DNA of 64,000 bases. Origin: Bacillus bingmayongensis. GTDB lineage: Bacteria > Bacillota > Bacilli > Bacillales > Bacillaceae_G. Shown in pieces: positions 47,697 through 57,645 of this stretch (its first letter is position 1; the number at the start of each line of letters is the position of its first letter). The stretch spans positions 62,001-126,000 of the forward strand of contig NZ_AKCS01000013.1 of the NCBI RefSeq assembly GCF_000299035.1. The letters run 5' to 3'. Under the pieces are notes generated by a model. It searched no databases. It was not told where the DNA came from and saw nothing but the letters and a program-made list of their open reading frames with translations. Made by a program: the position numbers and the translations under genes.

Positions 47697-49121
47697 TTAG
47701 CTTATTTTTTTATTTGGTTGTTCTGAAACGGAAGTAGATGAATTTCTCATCAGAATAGGATAGAGAACAAGTCCTAATACAAATAATCCAATGCCTAAGA
47801 AAAATGTTTTTAAATCAGCTGTTCCAGTTTTAATTACCCAAATAGAGTATAGGAGTGCAAGTAAGGTAATAATTCCATCTTTTACTCGAGAGCCTGGTGT
47901 TATATCGTATGTTTCTCCTGTTACAACAAGCTTTAATTGGTATAGGGTAGAAACAAGATATGGAATTAAATAAGCTAACGTCGCAACAACAATTGCGAAA
48001 TTATACGCTTCTGAGACAGTTCCAGATATTGTTGAAAATAAGAAAATTTGTGTCATAACATTAGTAACAAACAACGATTTTGAAGGACTTCCTTTTTGAT
48101 TGGTCTTTCCAAAGAATTTCGGGAAAAGTCCGTTCTTTGCTGCTTGATAAGGTACTTCTGAACTAACAACAATCCATCCTACAGTAGATCCGAACAATGA
48201 TACAAGTGCAAGGAGTGCCATAATGTAAGCACCTTTATTACCAATTGCTAGGTTTAATGCATCCACCAATGGTTTTTGAGATTCTTTTAAAGCATCTTGC
48301 GGAAGAGCACCCATTGTGAGTAGAGTAATTGCCATGTAAATAATAAGTGCAATAATTAATCCGAAAATCGTTGCTTTTTTTACATCACGCTGTGATTTTG
48401 CGCGATTAGACAACATAACTGCTGATTCAATTCCTATAAATGCCCAAAGAGTTGCAATGGCAGCAGCATTTATCTGTCCTCCTAATGGAATCGATTTTCC
48501 AGCTTCATTCATAAATGTTTGACCATCACCAAAATTAGAAGCGTTAAAAATAAATAATGTAATGACGATGAACATTGTAAATCCGATAATCTTTGCGATT
48601 GTTGCAAGTAGGTTCATGTTACCTGCACGATCAATATTTTGAGAAAGAATATATTGAATGCCCCATAGCATAATGCTACATACAGCAAATGTTAATCCTT
48701 TTCCAAGTTCTAATGAAAATCCGTTTAGTGAAAAAAGAACTTGCTTACTTTGTAAAACTGGGAAGAATGTAGACAAATATCCTGCAAATGAAATAATAAC
48801 AGAAGCAGTTGCAGCCCAGTTCGCAGCCCAGTATCCCCATGCCATACTATATCCAGCAACTTTACCTGCTTTTTGAGAGGTAAACATTGCTTGTGCATAA
48901 CTTTGTGGACCAGCTTTTAACTCCGGTTTACGCACTGCAAGATTCCCGAATACAAGTGCAATCATAAATACACCAAGTCCTGTAATACTCCATGCAAGTG
49001 TCGATCCCATTGGGCCTGATACTTGCGCTAAATTTGCTGGAAGCATAAATACGCCGCCGCCAACCATATTTCCAACAACAAACGCTGTTAAAATCCATAA
49101 ACCCCATTTTTTCGTTTCCAT
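47697..49121 (-). CDS. APC-family basic amino acid permease/antiporter, probably histidine-related
   Basis: This 474-aa protein has 12 membrane segments, of the basic amino acid/polyamine antiporter subgroup (ArcD/YvsH/HdcP relatives). GNMVGGGVFMLPANLAQ is at about 17-33, and WAFIGIESAVMLSNRAKSQRDV is at about 230. AAAGGAG precedes the ATG. The upstream leader encodes a peptide with four consecutive His codons and an attenuator, so histidine (or a histidine/histamine exchange) is the likely substrate. That substrate is an inference from regulation. It is monocistronic. Confidence 0.88.
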   Translation of the reverse strand: METKKWGLWILTAFVVGNMVGGGVFMLPANLAQVSGPMGSTLAWSITGLGVFMIALVFGNLAVRKPELKAGPQSYAQAMFTSQKAGKVAGYSMAWGYWAANWAATASVIISFAGYLSTFFPVLQSKQVLFSLNGFSLELGKGLTFAVCSIMLWGIQYILSQNIDRAGNMNLLATIAKIIGFTMFIVITLFIFNASNFGDGQTFMNEAGKSIPLGGQINAAAIATLWAFIGIESAVMLSNRAKSQRDVKKATIFGLIIALIIYMAITLLTMGALPQDALKESQKPLVDALNLAIGNKGAYIMALLALVSLFGSTVGWIVVSSEVPYQAAKNGLFPKFFGKTNQKGSPSKSLFVTNVMTQIFLFSTISGTVSEAYNFAIVVATLAYLIPYLVSTLYQLKLVVTGETYDITPGSRVKDGIITLLALLYSIWVIKTGTADLKTFFLGIGLFVLGLVLYPILMRNSSTSVSEQPNKKIS

Positions 49122-49180: not shown

Positions 49181-49229
49181 TAAAAATAAAAAAGAGCCAT
49201 GTAGATAAAAAATACCTACATGGCTCTTT
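49181..49229 (-). terminator. Attenuator terminator of the permease leader
   Basis: On the - strand AAAGAGCCATGTAG (49229-49216) pairs with 49204-49191, followed by a T-rich run (49190-49181). It lies 60 bases before the permease start codon and is the conditional terminator of the His leader. Confidence 0.88.
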
Positions 49230-49299
49230 GCCTAACGTAGGTACAACGGGAATAACCCTTGTACCTACGCGTAATTTTTTCCGCTAGGTTTCAAGGGTT
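49213..49299 (-). promoter_or_regulatory. Mutually exclusive hairpins of the His attenuator
   Basis: On the - strand three helices compete. Helix 1:2 joins AACCCTTG (49299-49292) plus 49289-49282 with 49271-49254, as two helices of 8 bp each. Helix 2:3 joins CGTAGGTACAA (49269-49259) with 49246-49236 (11 bp). Helix 3:4 joins TACCTAC (49243-49237) with GTAGGTA (49219-49213), extended by GGC/GCC. Segment 4 is also the 5' arm of the terminator. Segment 1 begins on the last base of the leader stop codon, so a ribosome at that stop hides it. Confidence 0.75.
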
Positions 49300-49355
49300 T
49301 ACGTATGATGATGATGTTTTTGTGCAAATGTAACTACAGTTGTATTCGTAAGCAT
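49299..49355 (-). CDS. Histidine leader peptide MLTNTTVVTFAQKHHHHT
   Basis: An 18-codon frame reads ATG...CAT CAT CAT CAT ACG TAA. It has an AGGGAG site 9 nt upstream and follows a sigma-A promoter (49420-49392). Four tandem His codons just before the stop are the signature of a transcription-attenuation leader that senses charged tRNA-His. The stop codon abuts the first attenuator segment. It was missed by ORF length cut-offs. It is the key evidence that the permease downstream responds to histidine supply. Confidence 0.82.
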   Translation of the reverse strand: MLTNTTVVTFAQKHHHHT

Positions 49356-49391
49356 AGTTCTTTGCTCCCTTTCTCCTCTGATTTTGAAGTT

Positions 49392-49420
49392 AGTATACTA
49401 CATGTTTTTTAGAATGAAAA
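49392..49420 (-). promoter_or_regulatory. Promoter of the His leader-permease transcript
   Basis: On the - strand TTTTCA (49420-49415), a 17-nt spacer and TATACT (49397-49392) form a promoter about 40 bases before the leader ATG. Confidence 0.6.
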
Positions 49421-53743: not shown

Positions 53744-54868
53744 TTAATTTAAAACGCCGCCATATAATATTTCCACTTCTACTTCAGGAGTAAACTTTAC
53801 CTTTTGATAATCTTTTTTCCAGTTCTTTTTCTTCCATAAATCTGGATGATAGGCGATAAGATGTCGTCCAACACCAAAGGCATCACAATGAGCTTTTTGG
53901 AGAGTTTTAATAATCTTTTTTGATTCTTTTGTAAGCTGTTCAGATAATTGCTTATTTAATTTTTTACGCTCTTTTGCTTTATGTAAATGATCTTTCGGAT
54001 ATTCGACGACAATGACTCGTAATTGAAGTTTAATATTTACATGAATATTTCCCTTTTTGTCTGTTGTCACTTTTCTTTTTCTTTTTACCTTTTGCTTATT
54101 TACTTCAATGGTGACATAATTAGCTGGTTTGGATGCATCCTTTCCTGATAATTTCTGTGTTATACGAGCGCTGGGCCCCATTTTCTCAGATAGCAATACG
54201 AAAAGTACCGATTGATTAAGAGGAAGGTGTCCTGTTAATTTATCATTGTGAAATAACGCTAGACCATTTGCAATGATTTCTTTCCCTTTTACTTTTATAG
54301 AAGGAAGAGTAAAATCTTCTCCAGGGTCTGCTATTTTGCGAAATACTGCTTCTAATGTTTCGTTTGGAAAAACACTCATGTCTTCTAAACTTCGTACTTT
54401 TTTCTTTAAAAATTCACCTATTAATAAATTTCCTACTTTTTTCTTCTCAAGAACTTTAGAGGCTTTGCCATCTACTGAAATGAGTTTTACAGGTGCAGTT
54501 GGATTACCGGGATCACGGAAACCGACATCTAGTAGTGGGAATATTCCCTTTTTTTCAAGAACTTTTCCTGTTAACTGTACATTATATTTAAAATAACGAG
54601 TATTTCCTGTTACATTTTTTCTTAATGAATCACTTGTATCTCGTGCAGTATGACCGGTCGCTGAGTGAATTTCATTTAAAACAGAGGATTGTTCTCCACC
54701 TGAGCTTTTGACAAGTTCGACGGTCTGCATTAACCGATTTTCAGATATTGCGTCATATGCAATACTATATGCTAGGTGCGCGTCTCTTAATGATTCTTGA
54801 TCCCAACATCCGGAAAGAAATAGCACAGTGCATATCATGATACACAAATTTATTATTCTTTTTAGCAT
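53744..54868 (-). CDS. Ger(x)C family germinant receptor lipoprotein
   Basis: This 374-aa protein has a lipoprotein signal with lipobox LSGC (Cys 21, then WDQESLRD, the GerC hallmark). Three GerC domains follow, rich in Lys. It is tethered to the outer face of the spore inner membrane and completes the receptor with the GerA- and GerB-type subunits encoded upstream, with which it overlaps by 7 bases. Some of its length is a charged helix (HLHKAKERKKLNKQLSEQL). Confidence 0.92.
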   Translation of the reverse strand: MLKRIINLCIMICTVLFLSGCWDQESLRDAHLAYSIAYDAISENRLMQTVELVKSSGGEQSSVLNEIHSATGHTARDTSDSLRKNVTGNTRYFKYNVQLTGKVLEKKGIFPLLDVGFRDPGNPTAPVKLISVDGKASKVLEKKKVGNLLIGEFLKKKVRSLEDMSVFPNETLEAVFRKIADPGEDFTLPSIKVKGKEIIANGLALFHNDKLTGHLPLNQSVLFVLLSEKMGPSARITQKLSGKDASKPANYVTIEVNKQKVKRKRKVTTDKKGNIHVNIKLQLRVIVVEYPKDHLHKAKERKKLNKQLSEQLTKESKKIIKTLQKAHCDAFGVGRHLIAYHPDLWKKKNWKKDYQKVKFTPEVEVEILYGGVLN

Positions 54869-55956
54869 GTATCTTCTCCTTGTTTATTTCGCAGTAGGGC
54901 GTAAAGTAAAAATAAGAAAGGAAGAATGCCAATGAAAATATAGGTGGTGTGATCTGCGAATTTGGCAATAGCCTCTAGTTCTTCAGGGGTATTCAAAAAA
55001 CAGGCGATACAAAAAGAAATAAGACCTATAATGGGAACAGCTTTTTGGTGCTTATCTAGTTTGAAAATATATCCTATTCCAGTAGATGATGCACAGAAAT
55101 AACTGACAATAGATGCTACAACAGTGGTCATCCATATAGGAATGAAAATGAGATCCGCACGATCTATAATACCGATGTGAAGAGATCTTAATAAATAGAC
55201 GACTGGTTGAGGGATTAACTCAATTTGCTTTGAGCTAAAGACGATAAAGCAGATCCATACTGTAAACGTATAAAATATCGTTACAAATCCATTGGCAATT
55301 GAAATAGCTTTTAACCTTGCTGTAGGGCTTCCGTGTGCAAACGGATAGGCGATGAGCATAATTTCAAACCCGTACATCGCAGTTATCGTTTCTTTCGATG
55401 CTCGAATAATGTTCCACCAACCTGCTTCTGTAATCGGGAAAATATATGAAAATTCAGCATGGGTAAGACCGAGCCCAATTAGAAAAGCCATTGGGACAAT
55501 AAGGATAGATATCATAACGTAAAATCGTACAATGACTTTGAACGTGTTATAAGCTACAAATGAACAAGCGAACGTGAATATTAAGAGAACAATAGACCAA
55601 GGAGTTACTTGTAAAATCCATATTTTAATGACGCTGCAAGCATTTAACATAACTGTCATGCCAATAAGCATAAAGTAGAAAATATAAGAAACACCAAGTA
55701 TTTTTCCAAATACGTTTCCGAACATTTTTGAAACAATTTCATAGAGTGTAGCTCCCGGAAATCGCTTCATTAATAACCACATGAGCAAAATAATGATTTG
55801 AATGATAAGTCCTGCTATTATTGTGGAAATCCATCCACCACCTTTTGAAATTGGGTGAAGGCGATTGGGAAGAGAGAGGAGACCTACACCAATTTGACAT
55901 TGAATAATAAAAACGGTAAATTGCCCAAGTGTAATTTTACTTTGATTGCTGATCAT
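54862..55956 (-). CDS. GerB-family germinant receptor integral membrane subunit
   Basis: This 364-aa protein has ten membrane helices and an APC-superfamily-like fold, with IQCQIGVGLLSLP in helix 1 and the mid-protein segment TITAMYGFEIMLIAYPF. GerB subunits are the probable germinant-binding site. The gene overlaps gerA by 20 bases and gerC by 7, so the three are translationally coupled. AGGAGGAGAG inside the gerA end serves its ATG. Confidence 0.92.
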   Translation of the reverse strand: MISNQSKITLGQFTVFIIQCQIGVGLLSLPNRLHPISKGGGWISTIIAGLIIQIIILLMWLLMKRFPGATLYEIVSKMFGNVFGKILGVSYIFYFMLIGMTVMLNACSVIKIWILQVTPWSIVLLIFTFACSFVAYNTFKVIVRFYVMISILIVPMAFLIGLGLTHAEFSYIFPITEAGWWNIIRASKETITAMYGFEIMLIAYPFAHGSPTARLKAISIANGFVTIFYTFTVWICFIVFSSKQIELIPQPVVYLLRSLHIGIIDRADLIFIPIWMTTVVASIVSYFCASSTGIGYIFKLDKHQKAVPIIGLISFCIACFLNTPEELEAIAKFADHTTYIFIGILPFLFLLYALLRNKQGEDTC

Positions 55957-57445
55957 CTCTCTCCTCCTCTCTGTTGATTGGCTGCCTTAACATTTTTTTA
56001 GGTTTTGGATCATGAGGGCGGTTCCCAAAAGACCAAATTGGGAGCCTTACAAACGCATCTTTCATATCTTTTATTCGCATTGGAGCGATTGGAGAAAGAT
56101 ATGGTGTATGAAAAGAATGAAGCTGACATAAATGAACAAATGTAATAATTAACCCAAATGAAATACCAACATAGCCGAATAGGGCAGCTAAAATCATTAA
56201 TGGAAATCGAAGTATACGAACAGCAGAGCTCATATCATTTGATGGAACGAGAAATGATGAAATCGCTGTTAAAGCAACAACAATAGTCATCGTATAAGAA
56301 ACAAGCCCCGCTTTTACAATGGCATCGCCAATTACTAAACCGCCTACAATACCAATAGTTTGGCCAACACGGCTTGGTAAACGAATCCCAGCTTCCCGTA
56401 ATAGTTCAAAGATTAACTCCAGTAATAAAGCTTCAATGATAGGAGGAAACGGTACACGCTCTAACGAAGATTTAATCGTATAAACTAATTCGAGCGGTAA
56501 AACGTCAGGATGAAAAGCGACGGTTGCGATATAAAAAGCGGGTAAGAGAAAAGCGATTAAAAAACTTACAATGCGAAGCATTCGAATGAAAGAGCCAACA
56601 ATCCAGCGATTGTTATAATCGTCTGGTGATTGATAGAAAGCAAATAATGTTACAGGAACAATAAGAGTTGTTGGATCTCCATCTGCTAAAATAGCAACTC
56701 TACCTTCCATAAGATTCGCTACTGTCCGGTCCGGACGCTCTGTGTTTAGCTGTTGTGGAAATGGTGAAAAAGATGTATCTTCAATAAATTCTTGTATATA
56801 CCCTGGCGGCATAAGTGAATCAGTTTTAATGGTTTGTAATCTTCTTTTTACCTCTGTTACAAGTTCATCGTTTGCTAAATCTTGCATATAGACAATGGCA
56901 ACTTTGGTATGCATTTCTTCACCAAGTGTAAAGTATTTAACCACTAAATTTGGATTTTTAATGAGTTTGCGAATGGAAGTTAAATTAGTAGCTAAATCTT
57001 CTACAAAACCAGTATGTGGTCCGCGGACAATTCCTTCGTTATCAGGTTCTTTTATATCTCTTTTTAGGGATAATGCTGTTTCGAAAATGCAAAAACTTTG
57101 AGCCTTTTCGTGAAAATACAAAGACTTTCCTTGTAATAAAAGTTGTATTCCATACAGTAAGTTTGTTTCGCTTTTCATGTTTAATGTAGAAAAGGCTTCA
57201 TTAAGTGATAATTCAGTTCGTGTTAATAAAGGTTCGAGGGCAAATTGATGAATTAAATTAGGATCTGCTAAAGATTCAATATATAATAGAGTGCCTTTTT
57301 CATTTTGAAAAGGAAGTTCAAGTTTTTTTAAATCATCGGAATGAAATAGTTTGTTTTCAAGGTAGTTGATATTTTCTGCAAAGGATGGAAACATATGCTT
57401 TTCTTTATTTCCAGATTGCTTATCGTTTTGTTTTATTTGTGTCAT
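55937..57445 (-). CDS. GerA-family germinant receptor subunit
   Basis: The protein has 502 residues from the ATG at 57445, served by AAAGGTGG; the frame's GTG at 57454 overlaps the site. It has a hydrophilic N-terminal domain to about residue 280, with the conserved SFSPFPQQLNTERPDRTVANLMEGRVAILADG, then five to six membrane helices and a Lys/Arg/Pro tail. It is in the spore inner membrane. Which germinant it serves cannot be told. A CATAATA sigma-G-like -10 lies at 57497-57491 on the - strand with a poor -35. Confidence 0.93.
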   Translation of the reverse strand: MTQIKQNDKQSGNKEKHMFPSFAENINYLENKLFHSDDLKKLELPFQNEKGTLLYIESLADPNLIHQFALEPLLTRTELSLNEAFSTLNMKSETNLLYGIQLLLQGKSLYFHEKAQSFCIFETALSLKRDIKEPDNEGIVRGPHTGFVEDLATNLTSIRKLIKNPNLVVKYFTLGEEMHTKVAIVYMQDLANDELVTEVKRRLQTIKTDSLMPPGYIQEFIEDTSFSPFPQQLNTERPDRTVANLMEGRVAILADGDPTTLIVPVTLFAFYQSPDDYNNRWIVGSFIRMLRIVSFLIAFLLPAFYIATVAFHPDVLPLELVYTIKSSLERVPFPPIIEALLLELIFELLREAGIRLPSRVGQTIGIVGGLVIGDAIVKAGLVSYTMTIVVALTAISSFLVPSNDMSSAVRILRFPLMILAALFGYVGISFGLIITFVHLCQLHSFHTPYLSPIAPMRIKDMKDAFVRLPIWSFGNRPHDPKPKKMLRQPINREEERDDQQSK

Positions 57446-57645
57446 AATTTCCACCTTTTATAGAATAAAATCATGTTGTTAATTTTTGCTTATTATGAAA
57501 AATTTATGCTTATATTTGTTGGTGGGAATCTGTAGAATCGCAAACAATTGGAAATACAATGTGTATAGATAGTATTTGTCTATTGGTATTAAGGGTTTTA
57601 TGGGGATGTATAACATCACCAGTTTCTTGCTTTGAATTTAGATAT

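What the first reader, a model, noticed from the sequence alone, without database searches (positions are those of the whole stretch)
49181..49420. Histidine leader-peptide attenuator controlling an APC permease
On the - strand, a promoter is followed by an RBS and an 18-codon leader peptide with four consecutive His codons, then by segments that can form exclusive pairs 1:2, 2:3, 3:4 and a terminator 4:5. Segment 1 starts on the last base of the leader stop codon. A ribosome that completes the leader hides segment 1, so 2:3 and the terminator form (off). A ribosome stalled on the His codons leaves segment 1 free, so 1:2 forms and 3:4 disarms the terminator (on). In Bacillus, histidine genes are generally known for T-box control; a translated His leader for a permease in this group would be notable. 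It also predicts the substrate of an otherwise unassigned transporter.
Basis: partly seen in the sequence, partly recalled or inferred. Interest (0 to 1): 0.85.

Follow-up and report, generated by a model that had tools for sequence, protein, structure and literature searches.

The report
Histidine-starvation switch for a permease
A short RNA leader that makes a tiny histidine-rich peptide very probably turns on an amino-acid importer when the cell runs short of histidine; the switch type is known in related bacteria, but its use on this importer appears new and points to what the importer carries.

Summary
On the minus strand a promoter-like site, a Shine-Dalgarno and an 18-codon leader (MLTNTTVVTFAQKHHHHT) are followed by segments pairing 1:2, 2:3, 3:4 and 4:5 (terminator), then an APC permease gene. 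Permease orthologues in Ectobacillus (77%) and Bacillus sp. 165 (74%) have homologous HHHT leaders and nearly identical RNA. Homologous elements precede hisZ-hisG, hisS paralogues, a hisD paralogue and YuiF-type permeases in other Bacillales; covariation over ten distinct elements supports both folds. In a coarse folding model segment 4 is freed as the ribosome moves from the His codons to the stop (clear in 14 of 16 elements). Independently, 45 of 50 permease orthologues carry a HisR-operator-like box; the two leader-bearing relatives lack box and hisR. Best reading: ribosome-mediated transcription attenuation of a histidine importer by histidine. The class is known (His leaders of hisZ/hisS*, 2010; B. 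cereus-group his operon, 2022). New are this target, its predicted substrate and the apparent HisR-to-attenuator swap. No experiment was done, and the window's species is not established.

The parts
49392..49420 (-). sigma-A-like promoter TTTTCA-17-TATACT
   Evidence: 9 of 12; AGTATACT also before the leader in L022
49365..49372 (-). Shine-Dalgarno AAAGGGAG of the leader, 9 nt before ATG
   Evidence: sequence; AAAGGGAG identical in L048 and L022
49299..49355 (-). leader peptide MLTNTTVVTFAQKHHHHT*, four CAT codons at positions 14-17
   Evidence: C-terminus like MFNVTLFAQLHHHT* (L048) and MFNTTMFVQLHHHT* (L022)
49287..49299 (-). segment 1 (AACCCUUGAAACC), pairs with segment 2; begins on last base of the stop codon
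49254..49269 (-). segment 2 (CGUAGGUACAAGGGUU)
49235..49250 (-). segment 3 (CCCGUUGUACCUACGU); pairs with 2 (off) or with 4 (on)
49213..49229 (-). segment 4, 5' arm of the terminator
49188..49207 (-). segment 5, 3' arm of the terminator and start of the T-run
47697..49121 (-). APC-superfamily permease, 474 aa, predicted histidine importer; SD AAAGGAG 49138-49132
   Evidence: PF13520; TIGR00905 345.8 bits, under its cut-off 409.05; no NCBIfam cut-off reached

Best explanation
This is a ribosome-mediated transcription attenuator that senses charged tRNA-His and controls a histidine uptake permease. With enough histidine the ribosome reaches the leader stop codon and covers segment 1; segment 2 pairs with 3, segment 4 stays free, and 4:5 terminates transcription before the permease gene. 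When charged tRNA-His is scarce the ribosome waits at the first His codons; its front edge stops short of segment 1, so 1:2 forms, 3 pairs with 4, the terminator is not made and the permease is expressed. In this lineage it stands where most other Bacillaceae examined have a HisR-like operator before the same permease. Shown from sequence: anatomy, conservation, covariation, modelled switch position, linkage to histidine genes. Inferred: stalling, read-through, substrate and direction of transport.
For: Anatomy. Homologous leaders and nearly identical RNA before two permease orthologues. On the sequence-only alignment A5 (11 rows, 10 distinct): ON structure 93.5% of cells paired, 6 of 17 pairs with changes on both sides, slid controls 29-48%; OFF structure 93.1%, 7 of 27, slid controls 29-51%. 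Helix 1:2 pairs fully in 10 of 10 hand-cut rows, with compensatory changes at 4 of 8 positions. One position changes in segments 2, 3, 4 and 5 together (U-A-U-A in the window, C-G-C-G in L062). Pairing of segment 4 with upstream RNA is higher with segment 1 free than hidden in 16 of 16 elements, and falls between the first His codon and the stop: window 0.77 to 0.47, L048 0.78 to 0.34, yuiF type 0.69 to 0.12. Shuffled segment 1 never matched the window's value (0/200). Homologous elements precede hisS paralogues, a hisD paralogue, hisZ-hisG and YuiF-type genes. HisR-like box before 45 of 50 permease orthologues but not before the three with this leader; box conserved above its flanks in 26 representatives; hisR not found in either leader-bearing relative. 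Bacillus sp. 165 has neither hisG nor hisD found, yet keeps element and permease.
Against: No expression, ribosome or uptake data. No whole genome is held for the window, so its other histidine genes and hisR could not be checked. The switch is weak in 2 of 16 elements (L096, 0.88 to 0.87; L097, 0.76 to 0.68). Shuffled segment 1 reached the observed sequestration in 22/200 for L063, 54/200 for L095, 22, 23 and 35/200 for L097, L098, L099, 20/200 for L075 and 10/200 for L087; in the other nine it was 0-4/200. 4:5 covariation is not beyond row shuffles (131/2000), nor are pair types (130/500 and 489/500). In G001, G005, G007 and G021 no His leader was found before the his operon itself. G057, G221 and G011 have hisR and also His leaders at other genes, so the two controls do not exclude each other everywhere. 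The full untranslated RNA favours the terminator at equilibrium, so the on-state must be kinetic. The nearest named protein families are basic amino-acid antiporters.
Confidence: 0.88

Rival explanations
1. The attenuator senses histidine as described, but the permease is an exchanger (for example histidine for another amino acid or amine) or mainly carries another basic amino acid; histidine control serves export or balance rather than import.
For: Best family model is basic amino acid/polyamine antiporter (TIGR00905, 345.8 bits against cut-off 409.05), then arginine-ornithine antiporter (312 against 591); nearest solved structure by sequence is the arginine/agmatine antiporter AdiC.
Against: All NCBIfam cut-offs missed, including both histidine-histamine antiporters (200.6 against 725; 178.8 against 750); induction on starvation fits uptake; HisR-like boxes before orthologues; kept in a genome where hisG and hisD were not found; no histidine decarboxylase recognised by eye among the flanking ORFs of six loci, listed but not scanned with models.
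Confidence: 0.15
2. The element reports general translation slow-down (any stalled ribosome, including antibiotic stress) rather than histidine in particular.
For: Published Gram-positive leader attenuators respond to ribosome-targeting drugs (titles and abstract starts in the listing: PMC4191407, PMC6851288). In the model 1:2 is free to form at any codon up to the His run.
Against: The 22 leaders share a run of at least two His codons near their end while other residues differ between families (but HH near the end was the search rule); most identified targets are histidine genes.
Confidence: 0.06
3. Only the terminator and hairpins matter (fixed read-through, or an RNA made for its own sake); the small ORF is incidental.
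For: A sub-threshold Rfam resemblance to the sRNA sau-5971 (24.2 bits, cut-off 90).
Against: Leader ORF, HHHT end and stop position kept in the two orthologues; segment 1 begins at the stop codon in the 10 rows hand-cut; covariation for both exclusive folds.
Confidence: 0.03
4. T-box or protein-bound leader.
For: T-boxes are common in leaders of the B. cereus group (PMC2494555, passages).
Against: No T-box or other Rfam family at gathering score in the window; no T-box in the 40 of 50 orthologue loci scanned.
Confidence: 0.01

Closest known systems
Histidine leader peptide upstream of hisZ and hisS* in bacilli (PMC2965389; the section on hisS read in full, other passages)
   Same: short ORF with His run and premature terminator; elements before hisS paralogues and a HisZ-like gene are recovered by a model built from permease and orf154 elements
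   Different: targets there are the synthetase paralogue and hisZ; 'permease' occurs once in the main text, in the ABC section, 'APC' not at all
Candidate RNA attenuator of the his operon in six B. cereus-group species (PMC9413887; abstract, sections 5, 6 and 10 in full, passages of others)
   Same: leader with three to five His codons in a row, exclusive hairpins, in hisR-less Bacillales
   Different: reported for his operons; transporters named are HisXYZ, YuiF and hisT; no 'APC' in the main text; its alignment supplement could not be opened, so homology to this element is untested
Enterobacterial his operon attenuator (Rfam His_leader RF00514; details recalled)
   Same: logic: ribosome position chooses between antiterminator and terminator
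   Different: no RF00514 match in the window; the extra 5' segment of the enterobacterial leader was not established here
HisR (YerC) repressor regulon (PMC9413887)
   Same: same signal; a HisR-like box precedes 45 of 50 orthologues of this permease
   Different: DNA-binding repressor instead of RNA; best site before the window permease scores only 8 of 14

Membership tests
Ribosome-mediated amino-acid transcription attenuator (trp/his type) | short translatable leader ORF with own SD | tested here: met
   translation itself not assayed
Ribosome-mediated amino-acid transcription attenuator (trp/his type) | run of codons for the regulated amino acid, conserved | tested here: met
   HHHH here, HHH in both leader-bearing orthologues
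Ribosome-mediated amino-acid transcription attenuator (trp/his type) | mutually exclusive antiterminator and terminator | tested here: met
   covariation for both folds; 4:5 taken alone not beyond row shuffles (131/2000)
Ribosome-mediated amino-acid transcription attenuator (trp/his type) | ribosome position on cognate codons versus stop changes the fold | tested here: met
   modelled only; weak in 2 of 16
Ribosome-mediated amino-acid transcription attenuator (trp/his type) | read-through rises on starvation for the amino acid | not testable with these tools
   needs reporter or RNA measurement
Bacillus His-leader attenuator family (hisZ / hisS paralogue) | sequence and structure homology to leaders of known histidine genes | tested here: met
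   model R1 finds elements before hisS paralogues (E 2.8e-16, 2.9e-19), a hisD paralogue (3.3e-13), YuiF type (1.3e-10, 1.6e-10) and hisZ-like genes (3e-6 to 8e-5); the published sequences themselves were not compared
T-box riboswitch | T-box covariance model match | tested here: not met
Rfam His_leader RF00514 | covariance model match | tested here: not met
Histidine transporter | carries histidine | not testable with these tools
   inferred from regulation only
Arginine-ornithine antiporter (TIGR03810) | score over curated cut-off | tested here: not met
   312 against 591 bits

The most novel reading that the evidence does not exclude
One ancestral His attenuator has been copied from locus to locus in Bacillales, above all where hisR was lost, and has taken over a histidine regulon (his operon, hisS paralogue, YuiF permease and this APC permease), replacing a DNA-binding repressor at the same genes; the APC permease is then a further, unrecognised class of Bacillaceae histidine importer shared by the HisR and attenuator regulons.
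Probability: 0.55. Interest if true: 0.65.

Novelty: new member of a known kind. Interest (0 to 1): 0.52.

Why it matters
It gives a likely substrate to an APC permease that no curated family model assigns, from two independent kinds of regulatory evidence (His attenuator in one lineage, HisR-like box in most others). It also offers a case of a protein repressor apparently swapped for an RNA attenuator at the same gene, testable in harmless species.

Tried and rejected
T-box, riboswitch and known Rfam leaders: no match at gathering score in the window. The sub-threshold hits trpB motif RF04312 (34.7 of 59 bits) and sau-5971 (24.2 of 90) were taken as resemblance of hairpins and not followed. 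Seven loci with related elements gave one Rfam match at gathering score, an unrelated HEARO RNA in L097. A 36-base pattern of the element in viral contigs and the leader region against plasmids found nothing; a 24-kb part of the window against plasmids gave only short or weak alpha-glucosidase-type matches in 4 records, so the species was not identified.

Weak covariance-model hits: of the 30 loci returned, 18 show a leader with at least two His codons in a row and 12 do not. Six of those 12 were read: by eye L072 and L083 look like TPP riboswitch leaders, a motif recalled and not scored; the other four show hairpins but no clear leader. All 12 were dropped. A stray HH in L092 was judged chance. 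In one search only 8 first-look candidates per genome were scored, so missed elements are possible.

The permease-type box sought genome-wide gave one permease site each in 6 of 10 genomes plus 4 other sites with no histidine gene recognised nearby by eye; the reversed control pattern gave more sites (18 against 10), so that search says nothing about other HisR targets. Scoring the published consensus over about 1.5 kb before hisG did better: in 9 of 11 hisR-bearing genomes the best site (10-12 of 14) lies 20-55 nt before the hisZ start, in G415 and G011 it does not (no shuffle control).

A tree of 45 rows (window, 40 of 50 loci, 4 more distant relatives) left the three leader-bearing permeases on an unresolved fork: a single origin is neither shown nor excluded. 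orf154 and the ORF after the permease in L048 have no family match. Structure prediction was not run.

Full report
Observation. The RNA folds far better than dinucleotide shuffles (z -6.5 to -9.8). In the window, 2 of 1089 short ATG ORFs (nested starts counted) carry HHH and one HHHH. The promoter score by itself is near chance.

Relatives of the permease. A scan of genome contigs with peptide patterns gave 50 loci, best identity 77%; none of their titles names a B. cereus-group species, and no whole genome is held for the window. Among the 50, L048 (Ectobacillus panaciterrae) has the leader MFNVTLFAQLHHHT and L022 (Bacillus sp. 165) MFNTTMFVQLHHHT, each followed by RNA almost identical to the window from the stop codon to the terminator, in contrast to the diverged flanks. 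L004 and L009 have a different His-rich leader. The other 46 gave no comparable leader in the script.

The element is a family. A covariance model of five elements (R1) was run on 397 genomes of the order; 41 have a match at E up to 0.01, with 8 candidates scored per genome. Of the 30 loci returned, 18 show a leader with at least HH. What follows the element: the permease (L048, L022); a 154-aa ORF in G005 and G007; a histidyl-tRNA synthetase paralogue of the PRK12420 type in G021 and, about 590 nt further on, in G221; a histidinol dehydrogenase homologue in G057 (TIGR00069 323.6 bits, cut-off 243.8), which is a paralogue because the his operon of that genome has its own hisD (550.2 bits); a YuiF-type protein (PF03553 and PF13726; that this is the YuiF make-up is recalled) in G007 and G005; and a 305-310-aa HisZ-like protein, scored in one case (TIGR00443 194.5 bits, below its cut-off 271.65), with hisG directly downstream in the five such genomes checked, G009, G011, G012, G013 and G015. 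In G001 one further element precedes only a 37-aa ORF and an alpha/beta hydrolase. That most identified targets belong to histidine synthesis, charging or uptake, though R1 was built from none of them, is the strongest support for histidine specificity.

Structure. On the sequence-only MAFFT alignment A5 (11 rows, 10 distinct), the antiterminator structure has 93.5% paired cells, 15 cells changed on both sides (shuffle mean 5.2, 0 of 500 as high) and loses pairing when slid (29-48%); the terminator structure has 93.1%, 18 cells (mean 6.5, 0 of 500) and 29-51% when slid. The number of pairs with such changes was reached by 3 and 18 of 500 shuffles; further pair types were reached by 130 and 489 of 500, so that measure gives no support. 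Related sequences can beat the shuffles without structure, so the kind of change matters: between the window and L062 one position changes in segments 2, 3, 4 and 5 together, keeping 2:3, 3:4 and 4:5. In hand-cut segments of 10 rows (L061 dropped, its segments equal L062), 1:2 is 100% paired with both-sided changes at 4 of 8 positions; 2:3 and 3:4 are 97% paired (0 of 2000 row shuffles as high for each of the three); 4:5 96% (131 of 2000). Hand cutting leans towards the structure. The hisZ-type elements were not in these counts.

Switch. With transcripts ended after segment 4, pairing of segment 4 with any upstream RNA was computed with segment 1 free or its first 12 nt hidden: higher when free in 16 of 16 elements (of 22 leader-bearing ones; six near-copies of the hisZ type left out). 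Walking a ribosome with an assumed front edge 15 nt past the first P-site base, pairing is high with the first His codon in the A site and falls by the stop: window 0.77 to 0.47, L048 0.78 to 0.34, L022 0.78 to 0.43, L098 0.69 to 0.12, L074 0.82 to 0.13; L096 and L097 hardly change. In the hisZ-type leaders, with four extra codons after the His run, the fall comes within those codons. The edge value is recalled and only one was tried; the on-state must be kinetic, since the complete RNA prefers the terminator.

Independent evidence on the permease. PMC9413887 gives the HisR consensus cacTTTAnnnnnnTAAAgtg (section 6 read). Scoring the 300 nt upstream of each permease, 45 of 50 loci have a site with at least 11 of 14 matches, 25 of them CACTTTACCAAACTAAA; base shuffles of the same stretch reached the score in 0-11 of 200 in these 45. 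The exceptions are L022 (10), L048 (8), L036 (10), L044 (10) and L045 (9); the window scores 8. Many loci are close kin, so these are not 45 independent cases; in 26 boxed representatives of 27 tried the box columns are much more conserved than the flanks. In 9 of 11 hisR-bearing genomes the best site over about 1.5 kb before hisG lies 20-55 nt before hisZ. The hisR gene (TIGR02531) is found in 28 of 37 genomes searched; it was not found in those of L048 and L022, nor in G005, G007, G021, G009, G013, G015 and the metagenome-assembled G077, which has a boxed permease. It is present in G011, G057 and G221 although these carry His leaders at other genes, and in the genomes of L036, L044 and L045, whose permeases show no box. 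In Bacillus sp. 165 (G002) neither hisG nor hisD was found, so it may be a histidine auxotroph; the permease element is the only one one search found there. PMC9413887 (section 5) reports that HisR is missing from the B. cereus group among Bacillales. Protein families do not settle the substrate.

Literature. PMC2965389 (section on hisS in full, passages) reported His leaders before hisZ and hisS* in bacilli; PMC9413887 (abstract, sections 5, 6, 10, passages) reported His attenuators of the his operon in six B. cereus-group species; the table passage seen of PMC2494555 lists His T-box transporters as ABC systems. Term searches in the main texts of the first two show no APC permease. Searches listed no paper on this leader-permease pair as far as the listed titles and abstract starts show; several lists were capped, and supplements and subscription papers were not seen.

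Verdict. The attenuator passes the sequence tests available and belongs to a known kind. The new parts are its target, the predicted histidine transport, and the apparent exchange of a HisR-like operator for an RNA attenuator at the same gene. That the elements spread by copying between loci is likely from their similarity but was not tested against convergence.

Noticed in passing
L004 2855-2926 and L009 2842-2916: Two closely related permease orthologues carry both a HisR-like box and a different His-rich leader (MITIKCEFHSIKHHHRYHHHSC, MIITIKNNYNSIMAHHHQNHHHSC) without an evident terminator; perhaps a translational attenuator of independent origin.
   Followed up: partly
L061 1021-1485, L062 after the element, L048 4596-5174: A protein without family match (154-192 aa) follows the permease in Ectobacillus panaciterrae and stands directly behind the element in G005 and G007, as if the permease had been lost between them (36% identity over 131 aa). 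It may belong to histidine uptake.
   Followed up: partly
L097 1364-1532 and 1685-2491: In G001 a His attenuator (leader MIAKKIQFMTTAHHHF) precedes only a 37-aa ORF and an alpha/beta hydrolase with no known link to histidine.
   Followed up: partly
L096 1639-2955: A second histidinol dehydrogenase homologue in G057, outside the his operon, stands behind a His-leader element although this genome has hisR.
   Followed up: partly
L098 and L099: YuiF-type permease genes under the same attenuator family; the tables seen of PMC9413887 list YuiF under HisR or T-box only.
   Followed up: partly
window 49237-49268: Stem and loop of 2:3 are identical in the window and two other genera, beyond what pairing needs; a role in polymerase pausing or as a loop signal is conceivable.
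   Followed up: no
window 49367-49371 with 49293-49297: AAGGG of the leader SD can pair with CCCUU of segment 1, which could give termination when the leader is not translated at all.
   Followed up: no
window 53744-57454: Three minus-strand genes that look like a spore germinant receptor operon (recalled from sequence, not scanned).
   Followed up: no
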